A stretch of DNA of 64,000 bases from Streptomyces xanthii (GTDB lineage Bacteria > Actinomycetota > Actinomycetes > Streptomycetales > Streptomycetaceae). How positions within the stretch are numbered: position 1 is the stretch's first letter; every line of letters begins with the position of its first letter. Below, piece by piece: positions 12,792 through 16,144 of the stretch. The DNA is taken from assembly GCF_014621695.1 (NCBI RefSeq), contig NZ_CP061281.1:6200001-6264000 (forward strand), written 5' to 3'. The notes below the pieces were generated by a model. It was not told the DNA's origin, ran no database searches, and saw only the letters and a program-made list of their open reading frames with translations. Both the position numbers and the translations under genes were made by a program.

Positions 12792-12808
12792 ACCCGCAGG
12801 GCTTGTGA

Positions 12809-12864
12809 GCGGCGACCCTCTCCCTTTAGGGTCAGGTAGACCAATAACGGGAGGGGGTCGCCGC
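12809..12864 (+). promoter_or_regulatory. Inverted repeat that can hide the ribosome binding site of the NrtR-like gene, with a central palindrome
   Basis: Left arm 12809-12823 (gcggcgaccctctcc) pairs with right arm 12850-12864 (ggagggggtcgccgc) over 15 bp with one G-T pair. The right arm contains the ggaggggg ribosome binding site and ends at the base before ATG 12865. The loop holds ggtcaggtagacc (12830-12842), a GGTC-N5-GACC palindrome that could be a repressor operator. Both roles are inference from symmetry and position. Confidence 0.5.
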
Positions 12865-13662
12865 ATGCCCGGCACCGACACACCGGCCGCACCCAGCGCA
12901 CCGGCCCACGCCACACCGGCGTACGACAAGCACGCCTACGAGCCCTTCGCCGTCACCGTCGATCTGGCCGTCTTCACCATCCGCTCCGGCACCCTGCACA
13001 TCCTGCTCGTCGAGCGCGGCCAGGAGCCCTACGCCGGACGCTGGGCCCTGCCCGGCGGCTTCCTGCGGCCCGACGAGTCCGCCGAGGCCGCCGCCCGGCG
13101 CGAGCTCGCCGAGGAGACCGGGCTCGACGACGTGGCCGGCCTGCACCTGGAACAGCTGCGCACCTACAGCGACCCGCGGCGCGACCCCAGGATGCGGGTC
13201 GTCTCCGTCGCCTTCGCCGCGCTCGTCCCCGACGCCCCGCAGGCGCACGGCGGCGGCGACGCGGCCCGCGCCGCCTGGATCCCGTACGGCGGCGAGGACA
13301 CCGGAGCCCACGGGCCCCTCGCCTTCGACCACGACCGGATCCTCGCGGACGCCCACGAGCGGATCGGCGGCAAGCTCGAGTACACCTGCCTCGCCACCGC
13401 GTTCTGCCCGCCCGAGTTCACCCTCGGCGAGCTCCGCCACGTCTACGAGGTCGTCTGGGGCACCGAGCTCGACCCCGCGAACTTCCGGCGCAAGGTACTC
13501 GCGACCCCCGGCTTCGTCGCCCAGATCCCCGGCGCCTCCCGGCTGACCGGCGGCCGCGGCAAGCCCGCAGCCCTCTACCGCGGCGGCGGCGCCGACTCGC
13601 TCCACCCACCGCTGCTGCGCCCCGCACCCGAGCCCGCTCCCACGGAGGGAACCCGCCGATGA
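12865..13662 (+). CDS. NrtR-like regulator: Nudix domain plus winged helix
   Basis: 265 residues. A Nudix domain (about 28-160) carries a complete Nudix box at 65-87, GFLRPDESAEAAARRELAEE followed by TGL. The C-terminal domain (about 165-235, PPEFTLGELRHVYEVVWG then NFRRKVLATPGFV) is the winged helix of NrtR transcription factors, which repress NAD-metabolism genes and respond to ADP-ribose. In many NrtR proteins the catalytic box is degenerate; here it is intact, so hydrolysis may remain. The next gene overlaps by 4 bp (ATGA) and encodes an ADP-ribosylglycohydrolase, so an ADP-ribose signal could be both sensed and produced in the operon. ATG 12865 follows ggaggggg; a GTG at 12805 is possible but would place the repeat inside the coding region. 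Confidence 0.85.
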   Translation: MPGTDTPAAPSAPAHATPAYDKHAYEPFAVTVDLAVFTIRSGTLHILLVERGQEPYAGRWALPGGFLRPDESAEAAARRELAEETGLDDVAGLHLEQLRTYSDPRRDPRMRVVSVAFAALVPDAPQAHGGGDAARAAWIPYGGEDTGAHGPLAFDHDRILADAHERIGGKLEYTCLATAFCPPEFTLGELRHVYEVVWGTELDPANFRRKVLATPGFVAQIPGASRLTGGRGKPAALYRGGGADSLHPPLLRPAPEPAPTEGTRR

Positions 13663-14684
13663 CCGCCCCGACCAAGAACACCGCCACCGGTTCTCTCGTC
13701 GGCCTCGCCCTCGGGGACGCGCTCGGCTTCCCGACCGAGTTCAACGACGTCCCGTCGATCCTCGCCAAGCTCGGCCCCTGGCGGGACATGGACCTGCCCC
13801 GGCCGCTGGCCCACATCACCGACGACACCCAGATGGCACTCGCCGTCGCCCGCGCCCTGCGCACCGGCATGGGGCGCGGCACCCTCGGCCCGAAGCGGTT
13901 CGAGCGGCCGCTGCGCGAGGAGTTCGTCGACTGGTACCACTCGCCCGACAACAACCGCGCGCCCGGCAACACCTGCCTCACCGCCTGCCGCCTCCTCGAC
14001 AGCGACCGCCGCTGGCAGCAGGCCACCCAGATCCACTCCAAGGGCTGCGGCGCCAACATGCGGGTCACCCCTCTCGGCCTCGTCCCAGGCCTGAGCGACG
14101 CGCAGCGCTCCGGCGCCGCCCAGCTGCAGGCCGCGCTCACCCACGGCCACCCCACCGCCCTCGCCGCGAGCGACCTCACCGCGCGGGCCGTCCAGCTCCT
14201 CGCCGAAGGCGTCGACCCCGCCGGACTCGTCGGACAGCTGCGCTCCCACGCCCTGCGCAGCCGCACCGTCTACCGCGAGGACTGGCTCGGCGACCTGTGG
14301 CGCGGCTCCCAGGACCCGGACCCCGAGCACTTCGTCACCCGCGGCTGGGACGAGTGCCTCGCCGTGCTCGAGAAGCTCGAAGCCGCCCTGCGCGACCCCA
14401 ACCCCGAGATCGACCCCTGCCTCGTCACCGGCGCCGGCTGGATCGCCGAAGAGGCCCTCGCCACCGCCCTGTTCTGCTTCCTGCTCTTCGTCGACGAGCC
14501 CGTCCTCGCCCTGCGCCGGGCCGCCTGCACCTCCGGCGACTCCGACTCGATCGCGGCCCTGACCGGCGCCTTCGCGGGCGCCCACCTCGGCACCGACGCC
14601 TGGCCCGAGGACTGGGTCGAGCGCGTCGAGCACCGCGAAGAACTCCTCGCGATCGGCGCCGCCTGGGACGGAGGCACCCTGTGA
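13659..14684 (+). CDS. ADP-ribosylglycohydrolase (DraG/ARH family)
   Basis: Predicted cytosolic Mg-dependent hydrolase that removes ADP-ribose from protein, nucleic acid or a small molecule. 341 residues, all-alpha. The first metal-binding motif is TDDTQMA (Asp55, Asp56) and the second GDSDSIAALTGAFAGAHLG near residue 292, both intact. Start GSLVGLALGDALGFPTEF is the family opening. It overlaps the NrtR-like gene by ATGA and the downstream nucleotidyltransferase by GTGA, so three genes are translationally coupled. The substrate is unknown; the RlaP neighbours point to RNA rather than nitrogenase-type targets. That last point is inference. Confidence 0.92.
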   Translation: MTAPTKNTATGSLVGLALGDALGFPTEFNDVPSILAKLGPWRDMDLPRPLAHITDDTQMALAVARALRTGMGRGTLGPKRFERPLREEFVDWYHSPDNNRAPGNTCLTACRLLDSDRRWQQATQIHSKGCGANMRVTPLGLVPGLSDAQRSGAAQLQAALTHGHPTALAASDLTARAVQLLAEGVDPAGLVGQLRSHALRSRTVYREDWLGDLWRGSQDPDPEHFVTRGWDECLAVLEKLEAALRDPNPEIDPCLVTGAGWIAEEALATALFCFLLFVDEPVLALRRAACTSGDSDSIAALTGAFAGAHLGTDAWPEDWVERVEHREELLAIGAAWDGGTL

Positions 14685-15475
14685 CCGCCCTGACCGACGC
14701 GACCGCCCTCGCCGACGCCGGACTGCCCATGGGCGCCGACCTCGGCGCGATCGTCGCCGACCAGACGGACCCGCTGCTCTTCGCGACCGTCTCCGGCGCC
14801 CACCTGTACGGCTTCCCGTCCCAGGACTCCGACGTCGACCTGCGCGGGGTCCACCTGCTGCCGCCGCGGGCGCTCGTAGGACTGCGCGAACCGGACGAGA
14901 CCCGCTCACGGATGTGGGACAAGGACGGCGTCGAGATGGACCTCGTCACCCACGACCTGCGCAAGTTCGTCCGCCTGATGCTGCGCCGCAACGGCTACGT
15001 CCTGGAGCAGCTGCTCTCGCCGCTCGTCGTGCACACGAGCCCGGCGCACGCCGAACTCGTCGCGCTCGCGCCCGGCGTCCTCACCCGGCACCACGCCCAC
15101 CACTACCGCGGCTTCGCCGGCACCCAGTGGCGGCTCTACGACAGGACGCGCGAACTCAAGCCGCTGCTCTACACCTTCCGCGTCCTGCTCACCGGCATCC
15201 ACCTCATGCGCACCGGCCGCGTCGAGGCCCATCTGCCCACCCTGCTCGACGCCGTCGACGCCCCCGGCTACCTGCCCGGGCTGATCGAGGCGAAGGCCGC
15301 CGCCGAGCACGGCGGCACCGACCTCCCCCACGAGCGGGCCGCCGCCGACGTCGAGACGCTGCACGCGGAGCTCGACGCGGCGCAGGCCGCGAGCACGCTG
15401 CCGGACGAGCCGGGCGCGTACGACGCGCTCGACGACCTGATCGTCCGGGTACGGCTAGCGGGCCTCCAGGGCTGA
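14681..15475 (+). CDS. RlaP-type nucleotidyltransferase (DNA polymerase beta superfamily), copy 1
   Basis: 264-residue predicted nucleotidyltransferase of PF10127 type, called RlaP in comparative work on RNA repair. The nucleotide-binding motif is SGAHLYGFPSQDSDVDLRG (about 38-56), with Asp51 and Asp53 as metal ligands and a later strand EMDLVTHDL giving a candidate third acid. The helical remainder resembles the family (HHYRGFAGTQWRLYDRTREL, LKPLLYTFRVLLTGIHLM). GTG 14681 overlaps the ADP-ribosylglycohydrolase stop. The final 21 bp overlap the end of a second, opposite-strand RlaP gene. No enzymatic role in Streptomyces is known to me. Confidence 0.85.
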   Translation: MTALTDATALADAGLPMGADLGAIVADQTDPLLFATVSGAHLYGFPSQDSDVDLRGVHLLPPRALVGLREPDETRSRMWDKDGVEMDLVTHDLRKFVRLMLRRNGYVLEQLLSPLVVHTSPAHAELVALAPGVLTRHHAHHYRGFAGTQWRLYDRTRELKPLLYTFRVLLTGIHLMRTGRVEAHLPTLLDAVDAPGYLPGLIEAKAAAEHGGTDLPHERAAADVETLHAELDAAQAASTLPDEPGAYDALDDLIVRVRLAGLQG

Positions 15476-16144
15476 GGCCCGCCGGGTCCGGACGAGGAAG
15501 TCCTCGACCCGGGCCCGGTCCGGCTCGGCCGGAAGGGGAGTGCGCTCCGCGGCCTGCTCGGCCTGGGCCGCGAGAGCCGCCATCCGGCGCTCGACCTCCG
15601 GCCACGGCACCTCGCCGCGCTTCACCGCGAGCAGTTCCTCCCGCTGCCCGCTCACGTCGATCATCAGCTCCCCGGTGCGCAGCAGATCCCGGCAGGAGGT
15701 CAGCAGGCGCAGCAGGTGCATGGCGTGCTTCCAGCGCGGGGCGCCGTGCGTGCGCACGTCCGCCTCCAGCTTCTTGCGCTGGCCGAGCGCGTAGCGGGCG
15801 AACGTGTCGTGCGCCTGCCGGGACAGGAAGGCGTCGCGCAGGCCGAGCAGTTCACGCCCCGTGTCCGTGATCCGCTCCACGATCGGCGAGTGCAGACACT
15901 CCAGCACGTTCGGGTTCGCCCGCAGCGCCAGCGAGCAGAACCGCTCCAGCTCCCACGAGAACTGCTCCTCGGCCGGCCCGTCCACATGCGTCGGCGGCTT
16001 CTCGAAGCGCCAGAACAGCGGCGTCGGCGCCAGGAACACGCCCCGCCGGTCCGTGTCGCTGCCCTCCGTGGCCAGCCCGAAGGCGCGCGAACCCATCACG
16101 CACGCGTACACCGTGTGATCACGCACCAGCCGCTCCGGTTCCAT
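15455..16144 (-). CDS. RlaP-type nucleotidyltransferase, copy 2 (convergent)
   Basis: 229 residues, same family as the preceding gene but diverged: MGSRAFGLATEGSDTDRRG (about 17-35) is the canonical GS-x4-G-x6-D-x-D motif and is closer to the family consensus than copy 1. LRANPNVLECLHSP and RKKLEADVRTHGAPRWKHAM are further family segments; the acid strand SWELERF provides a possible third ligand. ATG 16144 has only a weak ribosome binding site. It converges on copy 1 with a 21-bp overlap, so each transcript runs antisense into the other. Two dissimilar family members side by side suggest different RNA or nucleotide substrates. Confidence 0.85.
   Translation of the reverse strand: MEPERLVRDHTVYACVMGSRAFGLATEGSDTDRRGVFLAPTPLFWRFEKPPTHVDGPAEEQFSWELERFCSLALRANPNVLECLHSPIVERITDTGRELLGLRDAFLSRQAHDTFARYALGQRKKLEADVRTHGAPRWKHAMHLLRLLTSCRDLLRTGELMIDVSGQREELLAVKRGEVPWPEVERRMAALAAQAEQAAERTPLPAEPDRARVEDFLVRTRRASALEAR

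What the first reader, a model, noticed from the sequence alone, without database searches (positions are those of the whole stretch)
12809..16144. Nudix regulator, ADP-ribosylglycohydrolase and two RlaP nucleotidyltransferases as one locus
Three coupled genes (ATGA and GTGA overlaps) encode an NrtR-like Nudix/winged-helix protein with an intact catalytic box, an ADP-ribosylglycohydrolase and an RlaP-type nucleotidyltransferase. A second, diverged RlaP gene converges on the first with a 21-bp overlap. RlaP (PF10127) was proposed from comparative genomics to belong to RNA repair, and NrtR proteins sense ADP-ribose. This gives a candidate NAD/ADP-ribose-linked RNA or nucleotide repair system: damage or ADP-ribosylation removed, an end re-extended, and the cluster switched by its product. 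The function is inference; I know of no experiment on it in Streptomyces.
Basis: partly seen in the sequence, partly recalled or inferred. Interest (0 to 1): 0.78.

Follow-up and report, generated by a model that had tools for sequence, protein, structure and literature searches.

The report
NrtR-type operon with paired nucleotidyltransferases
In this probable Streptomyces, a likely ADP-ribose-sensing switch gene, an ADP-ribose-removing enzyme and a nucleotidyltransferase share one operon beside a second nucleotidyltransferase; comparing genomes suggests a salvage operon that picked up part of an older, independent pair of nucleotidyltransferases whose chemistry is not known.

Summary
The four genes and their 4-, 4- and 21-bp overlaps are real. 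They look like two modules, not one system.

Module 1: a Nudix/winged-helix regulator (NUD, complete Nudix box) paired with an ADP-ribosylglycohydrolase (ARH) in 58 of 58 fetched Streptomyces loci with intact NUD. In 29 of 80 loci pnuC-nadR (nicotinamide riboside salvage) precede NUD. A palindrome, overlapping a -10-like box in the window, precedes the first operon gene in 65 of 66 loci examined; in the window it lies at 12825-12847. Where NUD is missing, 8 of 9 loci keep a palindrome, with the half-site bases seen before a NUD paralogue elsewhere.

Module 2: RLA and RLB, two separate PF10127 clades. In 55 of 68 non-Streptomyces loci RLB lies directly upstream of RLA; 0 of 68 have NUD, ARH, PnuC or NadR relatives in the fetched stretch. 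Both have acidic catalytic residues and confident nucleotidyltransferase models; Hailong HalB is among the nearest solved folds.

RNA repair is not supported: no ligase match lies within 97 kb on the same contig in 12 genomes, and both clades lie outside the one holding the repair-adjacent proteins tested. It is not excluded. Best reading: an autoregulated ADP-ribose/NAD salvage operon that captured RLA of a nucleotidyltransferase pair.

The parts
12803..12808 (+). TTGTGA, candidate -35 box, 18 bp before a -10-like hexamer at 12827-12832
   Evidence: sequence; TTGTG-type boxes at similar spacing are visible in many upstream regions printed (read by eye, not counted)
12825..12847 (+). Palindrome TTTAGGGTCAGGTAGACCAATAA, candidate NUD operator overlapping the -10 region
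   Evidence: 2 mismatches to the 15 fixed positions of TTTATNGTCNNNNNGACNATNAA; apart from its own reverse-strand reading (3 mismatches) every other position on both strands of the 64-kb window has 5 or more. 65 of 66 Streptomyces loci carry a site within 2 mismatches upstream of the first operon gene
12865..13662 (+). NUD: NrtR-like Nudix + winged-helix regulator, 265 aa, complete Nudix box
   Evidence: PF00293, PF21906; nearest solved relatives AraR 5bs6 and Nudix protein 3gz5; box residues at least 97% identical in 59 sequences
13659..14684 (+). ARH: DraG/ARH-type ADP-ribosylglycohydrolase, 341 aa
   Evidence: PF03747 220 bits; DraG 2woe and ARH3 relatives; D55, D56, D294, D296 at least 97% identical in 67 sequences
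14681..15475 (+). RLA: PF10127 nucleotidyltransferase, 264 aa; D51, D53, D87
   Evidence: PF10127 180 bits; D51, D53 and D87 invariant in alignment A1 (38 sequences); AF2 pLDDT 91.6
15455..16144 (-). RLB: second PF10127 nucleotidyltransferase, 229 aa, convergent; D30, D32, E60
   Evidence: PF10127 113 bits; D30, D32, E60 at least 97% identical in 86 sequences; AF2 pLDDT 93.7

Best explanation
A two-module locus. Module 1 (12803-14684) is an autoregulated ADP-ribose/NAD salvage operon. NUD binds the palindrome over the -10 box and represses transcription. ADP-ribose, from ARH acting on ADP-ribosylated macromolecules or from NAD breakdown, binds the Nudix domain and lifts repression. Because its Nudix box is intact, NUD may also hydrolyse its own inducer and reset the switch. 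In many Streptomyces the same transcript carries pnuC and nadR, so the output is NAD rebuilding plus ADP-ribose removal. Module 2 is RLA/RLB, an older pair of Pol-beta-type nucleotidyltransferases that work together, probably as a complex or in consecutive steps, adding nucleotides to nucleic-acid or nucleotide ends. In the Streptomyces lineage RLA came under the NUD promoter while RLB stayed separately transcribed. Shown by computation: gene content, gene spacing, conservation of the palindrome and its base change where NUD is missing, acidic residues, predicted folds, pairing. Inferred: repression, ADP-ribose as inducer, hydrolysis by NUD, an RLA/RLB complex, their substrate, and the order of events.
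For: Operon: NUD-ARH 4-bp overlap in 46 of 58 loci, pnuC-nadR in 29 of 29, nadR-NUD in 25 of 32; ARH-RLA gap of 3 nt in 29 of 38. PnuC of L034 passes its NCBIfam equivalog cut-off (99.3 vs 42.45 bits); PF04973 in 3 of 3 tested. Palindrome: 65 of 66 loci within 2 mismatches of 15 fixed positions; for those 65 none of 50 mononucleotide shuffles did as well. In 28 whole genomes a stricter form with up to 3 mismatches matched in 25, 49 strand-wise matches against 5 for the backwards control; by coordinates all lie at or just upstream of this operon except one in G044. Regulator-palindrome link: 57 of 57 NUD loci have A or G at position 6; the 8 NUD-less loci that keep a site have T or C there and G or A at position 18, as in the TTTATCGTC-N5-GACGA site within 60 bp before 33 of 34 NUD paralogues; all 27 exact matches of that pattern are at paralogues. 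Pairing: 55 of 68 non-Streptomyces loci have RLB directly upstream of RLA, 40 with a 4-bp overlap. Folds.
Against: No binding, expression or enzyme data. RLA is not intact in 28 of 66 ARH-bearing loci, so module 1 does not need it. The window's own genome had no match at the stricter setting: its palindrome is a weaker copy. One of 57 NUD loci has G at position 18 like the NUD-less class. The base switch rests on 4 changes on the ARH tree (3 supported independent pairs, all concordant; sign test p 0.25, cannot reach 0.05). The paralogue pattern with 1 mismatch also matches elsewhere (91 strand-wise matches in 34 genomes, 33 of them at paralogues). NadR scores 194 bits against a 341-bit cut-off. 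The window lacks pnuC-nadR here; whether nadR lies elsewhere in its genome was not searched.
Confidence: 0.58

Rival explanations
1. RNA repair: ARH or the Nudix domain cleans ADP-ribosylated RNA ends, RLA/RLB restore lost nucleotides, a ligase reseals; the operon is switched by released ADP-ribose.
For: Family name and published prediction for RlaP in phages (passages of PMC7824862). RLB matches 177 phage records by tblastn; of three contexts read, Gordonia phage Daredevil gp89 sits beside an RNA ligase and Streptomyces phage BRock gp110 beside a polynucleotide kinase. RtcB is present in 12 of 12 genomes searched, PF09414 ligase above cut-off in 7 of 12, so a ligase in trans is possible.
Against: The three phage proteins group (97/95) with a third actinobacterial subfamily, not with RLA or RLB; a member of that subfamily, in L131, overlaps a PNKP-type gene. 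In the 12 genomes no ligase match lies within 97 kb of RLA/RLB on the same contig. Ten proteins near five pairs gave no RNA-ligase hit. The third phage read, Satis, has no annotated repair gene within 4 kb.
Confidence: 0.2
2. Counter-ADP-ribosylation immunity: an ARG-centred system with a Nudix transcription factor, as predicted in Viruses 2022, that strips ADP-ribose placed on host molecules by phage enzymes; RLA/RLB would be accessory.
For: PMC9503650 section 3.8 (read whole) describes ARG-domain loci in actinobacteria and other lineages with Nudix or WYL repressors, no linked ADP-ribosyltransferase, and variable extra genes. NUD+ARH fit that core.
Against: That section names phosphatases, chaperones, nucleases and ARPP, none recognised in the neighbours that I scanned, and no nucleotidyltransferase (its figure 7 is not held). 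The window locus sits between scpB/pseudouridine synthase and chorismate mutase/prephenate dehydrogenase/cytidylate kinase genes, a placing kept in most loci, and in relatives it is tied to pnuC-nadR. PADLOC (2023) gave one Nudix hit (PDC-S07, 27.8 bits) and nothing for the other three.
Confidence: 0.25
3. Independent neighbours: RLA was captured into the operon as a passenger and has no functional tie to ADP-ribose; RLA/RLB do one job, NUD-ARH another.
For: 0 of 68 non-Streptomyces loci have a NUD, ARH, PnuC or NadR relative in the stretch; NUD and ARH are intact without intact RLA in 25 of 58 NUD loci and adjacent in 8 of 23 further genomes without RLA/RLB-type hits; RLB is on the other strand in 39 of 40 Streptomyces pairs.
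Against: RLA follows ARH with a 3-nt gap in 29 of 38 loci, so it is probably co-transcribed under the same switch across the genus.
Confidence: 0.3

Closest known systems
NrtR (Nudix-related transcriptional regulator of NAD metabolism)
   Same: Nudix domain + NrtR winged helix (PF21906); palindrome at its own promoter; linked to NAD genes in relatives; M. smegmatis NrtR is called an auto-repressor (abstract start and passages of PMC6800001)
   Different: Palindrome TTTATAGTC-N5-GACTATTAA, not the mycobacterial GTTTTCGA-N7-TCGAAAAC quoted in PMC6800001; Nudix box complete, whereas the M. smegmatis protein has changes in the box and no ADP-ribose hydrolase activity; NCBIfam NtrR model 131.9 bits vs cut-off 400
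ARG-centred systems with Nudix/WYL regulators (PMC9503650, Viruses 2022)
   Same: ARH plus Nudix-HTH regulator in actinobacteria
   Different: Here PF10127 genes and, in relatives, pnuC-nadR are linked; the phosphatases, chaperones and effectors of that description were not recognised in the neighbours scanned
RlaP (RNA ligase-associated Pol-beta, PF10127)
   Same: Pfam family; acidic catalytic residues
   Different: No ligase match near RLA/RLB in 12 genomes; RLA and RLB are two separate clades outside the one that holds the phage proteins tested; they occur as a pair
Hailong HalB (PDB 9dbh/9dbi/9dbj)
   Different: About 11% identity; no sequence-profile match; for RLA Foldseek ranks kanamycin nucleotidyltransferases first; two different NTases instead of one; superfamily-level likeness only

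Membership tests
NrtR family | Nudix domain fused to NrtR-type winged helix | tested here: met
   PF00293 74.6 bits and PF21906 51.5 bits, both over cut-off
NrtR family | Conserved palindrome at its own operon | tested here: met
   57 of 57 NUD loci within 2 mismatches; binding itself untested
NrtR family | Linked to NAD synthesis or salvage genes | tested here: met
   Met in relatives: PnuC in 29 and NadR in 32 of 80 loci; not at the window itself
NrtR family | ADP-ribose relieves DNA binding | not testable with these tools
   needs binding assays
NrtR family (NCBIfam NF050029 equivalog) | score over the equivalog cut-off | tested here: not met
   131.9 bits vs 400: in the wider family, not that equivalog
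ADP-ribosylglycohydrolase (DraG/ARH) | PF03747 over cut-off with both acidic motifs | tested here: met
   220 bits vs 26.2; D55, D56 and D294, D296 at least 97% identical; that these are metal ligands is recalled family knowledge
RlaP (PF10127) | Pfam score over cut-off and acidic catalytic residues | tested here: met
RlaP as RNA-repair enzyme | association with an RNA ligase gene | tested here: not met
   In 12 genomes (11 with both genes, G059 with RLB only) none of 21 PF09414 and 17 RtcB match places checked lies within 97 kb on the same contig (draft contigs limit this); no ligase among 10 proteins near five pairs
RlaP as RNA-repair enzyme | groups with repair-adjacent members | tested here: not met
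   three phage proteins and the PNKP-adjacent L131 protein form one clade (97/95) with L158 and L159; RLA and RLB lie apart; order between subfamilies unresolved (80/14)
RlaP as RNA-repair enzyme | adds nucleotides to RNA 3' ends | not testable with these tools
   needs enzymology
Hailong | HalB-like nucleotidyltransferase | tested here: inconclusive
   among the nearest solved folds but about 11% identity and no sequence-profile match
Hailong | partner effector gene beside the NTase (recalled) | tested here: inconclusive
   apart from the PF10127 proteins no neighbour cluster recurs under more than 6 of 24 genus labels (rough gene calls); HalA itself was not searched for
ARG-centred immunity (Viruses 2022) | ARG domain with Nudix (or WYL) regulator | tested here: met
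ARG-centred immunity (Viruses 2022) | no linked ADP-ribosyltransferase | tested here: inconclusive
   none among the genes that I scanned; most neighbours were not scanned
ARG-centred immunity (Viruses 2022) | linked phosphatase, chaperone or effector genes (a phosphatase in a little over 55% of loci, by that paper) | tested here: inconclusive
   not recognised among the scanned neighbours; most neighbours were not scanned

The most novel reading that the evidence does not exclude
RLA and RLB form a two-subunit, template-independent nucleotidyltransferase, HalB-like in fold, that makes or extends an oligonucleotide (a signal, or a tail on ADP-ribosylated or NAD-capped RNA ends). In Streptomyces this enzyme is placed under an ADP-ribose-sensing repressor, so that NAD breakdown switches on oligonucleotide synthesis together with NAD salvage and removal of ADP-ribose.
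Probability: 0.15. Interest if true: 0.85.

Novelty: new variant of a known kind. Interest (0 to 1): 0.52.

Why it matters
It gives a concrete, testable regulatory unit for ADP-ribose in Streptomyces, where DraG-like hydrolases (SCO1766 among them) are listed as uncharacterised (passages of PMC5087735 and PMC9411070). The apparent takeover of the palindrome by a paralogous regulator where the local one is missing would be a natural experiment in regulator-site specificity. The RLA/RLB pair recurs under many actinobacterial genus names and is filed under an RNA-repair name that its context, where tested, does not support.

Tried and rejected
RNA repair as the single explanation: not supported (see rivals). 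'RLB is a recent diverged copy of RLA': rejected, separate clades. Chance neighbours for NUD-ARH: rejected (58 of 58 loci). A large regulon for NUD: the strict palindrome occurs about once per genome, so a local switch is more likely. Known defence system: PADLOC gave nothing for ARH, RLA or RLB and one Nudix hit for NUD. A solved relative of RLA or RLB by sequence: none credible (RLA alone, profiles). The viral-contig scan with A1 gave 36 distant loci (23-30% identity), listed but not analysed. In 23 Streptomyces genomes without RLA/RLB-type hits (16 with no PF10127 match, 7 with weak ones only) a NUD relative of 72% identity or more occurs in 8 and an ARH relative of 67% or more in 12; in all 8 with NUD the two are adjacent; a ninth, G008, has a partial NUD at a contig end.

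Rows dropped or special: of the 85 genomes, the window's own and 5 with only weak PF10127 hits (G013, G026, G062, G087, G099) were not fetched (G087 later as L159). Among the 75 RLB of the 80 stretches, L057, L066 and L072 lie away from this locus and L051 is a tandem pair elsewhere; L032 is an RLA alone elsewhere; L089 and L090 hold only distant relatives. Three stretches (L088, L089, L090) have no gene passing my filter (45% identity, 80% coverage and length). The palindrome table uses 66 loci with RluB and a downstream match; L056 there has only an ARH fragment; the tree test uses 64 with intact ARH. The first RLB-adjacency count let weak hits through and was replaced. My note gave wrong coordinates; 12825-12847 is right.

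Literature: statements that something was not found rest on searches (search listings). Burroughs and Aravind 2016 and Tan et al. 2025 (Hailong) are known to me only through citing papers, PDB titles and recall; Rodionov 2008 and Huang 2009 could not be read.

Full report
What is there. The four genes are at 12865-13662 (+, NUD), 13659-14684 (+, ARH), 14681-15475 (+, RLA) and 15455-16144 (-, RLB), with 4-, 4- and 21-bp overlaps. Pfam places them as Nudix + NrtR winged helix, ADP-ribosylglycohydrolase, and twice PF10127. The genome of 8.35 Mb has only these two PF10127 matches but nine PF03747 matches. Flanking genes by Pfam: ScpB and a pseudouridine synthase upstream; a YidB-like protein, chorismate mutase, prephenate dehydrogenase and cytidylate kinase downstream; short names such as RluB, AroH, TyrA, Cmk are mine.

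Conservation in Streptomyces. Of 101 genomes of the genus, 85 have a PF10127 match. I fetched 80 stretches from 79 of those genomes. The locus lies between RluB and TyrA in most. By my intactness filter 75 of 80 have RLB, 66 ARH, 58 NUD, 42 RLA, 32 NadR, 29 PnuC. All 58 with NUD have ARH. Of the 66 with ARH, 38 have intact RLA; 7 loci show RLA only in pieces or part (L054, L063, L071, L078, L080, L083, L088). Spacing supports an operon: 4-bp overlaps for pnuC-nadR (29 of 29), nadR-NUD (25 of 32) and NUD-ARH (46 of 58), and a 3-nt gap for ARH-RLA in 29 of 38. RLB runs the other way in 39 of 40 Streptomyces pairs.

The NAD link. Upstream genes in relatives are PnuC (PF04973 in 3 of 3 tested; NCBIfam equivalog over cut-off for the one tested) and a NadR-like protein (AAA_28 over cut-off in 3 of 3 and CTP_transf_like in 2 of 3; TIGR01526 over its whole length but below the curated cut-off in 2 of 2). 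The window lacks both here; its genome's only PF04973 match lies about 400 kb away, and NadR was not searched for genome-wide. The NAD part of the idea is therefore better supported by relatives than by the window itself.

The palindrome. TTTATNGTC-N5-GACNATNAA lies before the first operon gene, whether that gene is PnuC, NadR, NUD or ARH, in 65 of 66 loci within 2 mismatches of 15 fixed positions; the miss is L023. None of 50 mononucleotide shuffles per locus did as well for those 65. In 28 whole genomes a stricter form with up to 3 mismatches matched in 25 (49 strand-wise matches; backwards control 5); by their coordinates all lie at or just upstream of this operon except one in G044. The window's genome was one of the three without a match at that setting. 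The window's own site has 2 mismatches to the looser form, and no other position in 64 kb, apart from its own reverse reading, has fewer than 5.

A paralogous regulator. A second NrtR-like gene 59-62% identical to NUD occurs in 34 of the 37 genomes searched. In 33 of those 34 a site TTTATCGTC-N5-GACGA (up to 1 mismatch) lies within 60 bp upstream of it. All 27 exact matches of that pattern are at paralogues, but with 1 mismatch it also matches elsewhere (91 strand-wise matches, control 3). Of the 9 NUD-less loci in the table 8 keep a palindrome (one of them, L056, with only an ARH fragment); all 8 carry T or C at position 6 and G or A at position 18. The 57 NUD loci carry A or G at position 6, and T (42), C (14) or G (1) at position 18. 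On the ARH tree both traits need 4 changes; 3 supported independent pairs all agree, too few for significance. The reading, a takeover by the paralogue, is attractive but not proven.

The nucleotidyltransferase pair. Outside Streptomyces the pair stands alone. In the other 68, RLB is directly upstream of RLA on the same strand in 55, with a 4-bp overlap in 40; downstream in 1; about 2.4 kb upstream in 3; not found in 9, one of these (L251) beginning near a contig end. None of the 68 has a NUD, ARH, PnuC or NadR relative (45% identity, 60% coverage) in the stretch of up to 6 kb on each side. Besides the PF10127 proteins no neighbour cluster recurs under more than 6 of 24 genus labels. In a class-wide sample of 296 genomes, 78 with a PF10127 match, I fetched 40 stretches (39 of them from other genera); 8 hold both genes on one strand, RLB first, 7 of them within 82 bp and one 1.8 kb apart, and 2 hold RLB alone.

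RNA repair. RLB matches 177 phage records and RLA 23. I read three phage contexts: an RNA ligase neighbour (Daredevil), a polynucleotide kinase neighbour (BRock) and none annotated (Satis). In a tree of 35 proteins those phage proteins group with a third actinobacterial subfamily (L131, L158, L159; 97/95), of which the L131 gene overlaps a gene with PNKP kinase and phosphatase domains. RLA and RLB are each a supported clade elsewhere. In G065 a PF09414 match lies about 430 bp before a weak PF10127 match far from this locus (its subfamily was not placed in the tree). RtcB occurs in 12 of 12 and PF09414 over cut-off in 7 of 12 genomes searched; none of these matches is within 97 kb of RLA/RLB on the same contig. 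So RNA repair is possible in trans, not indicated by context.

Comparison with print. PMC9503650 (section 3.8 read whole; other passages; figures not held) predicts ARG-centred immune loci with Nudix or WYL repressors; the word RlaP has no occurrence in its main text. PMC7824862 (passages) gives the RlaP repair prediction in jumbo phages. PMC5087735 and PMC9411070 (passages) list DraG-like SCO1766 as uncharacterised; that SCO1766 is the orthologue of this ARH is my recollection of gene order and was not tested. No paper found combines these genes.

Verdict. Real, conserved, and more interesting as a regulatory and evolutionary case than as the proposed repair system. Interest 0.52; new variant of a known kind.

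Noticed in passing
G000:C1:1888685-1889458 (locus L160, 8195-8956): A second NrtR-like gene, about 60% identical to NUD, with its own palindrome TTTATCGTCAGGCAGACGACTAT just upstream.
   Followed up: yes
L054, L063, L071, L078, L080, L083, L088: RLA is found only in pieces or in part at the usual place, suggesting repeated decay of this gene in Streptomyces.
   Followed up: partly
L011:2082-5047 and L013:10113-13232: A sigma-70 family factor, a small gene and an MFS transporter lie between the pseudouridine synthase gene and NUD, where others have pnuC-nadR or nothing.
   Followed up: partly
G000:C1:5873569-5878454: Four ADP-ribosylglycohydrolase matches in a row on one strand, outside the window.
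   Followed up: no
G065:C1:7532422-7533849: An RNA-ligase-family match about 430 bp before a weak PF10127 match: a possible repair-type RlaP in Streptomyces.
   Followed up: partly
L045:7844-8242 and L026:8019-8282: A Rieske-type [2Fe-2S] protein gene lies next to RLB in these two relatives.
   Followed up: no
L131:5194-6779: A third-subfamily PF10127 gene overlaps by 4 bp a gene with PNKP phosphatase and P-loop kinase domains, in a genome of another family of the class.
   Followed up: partly
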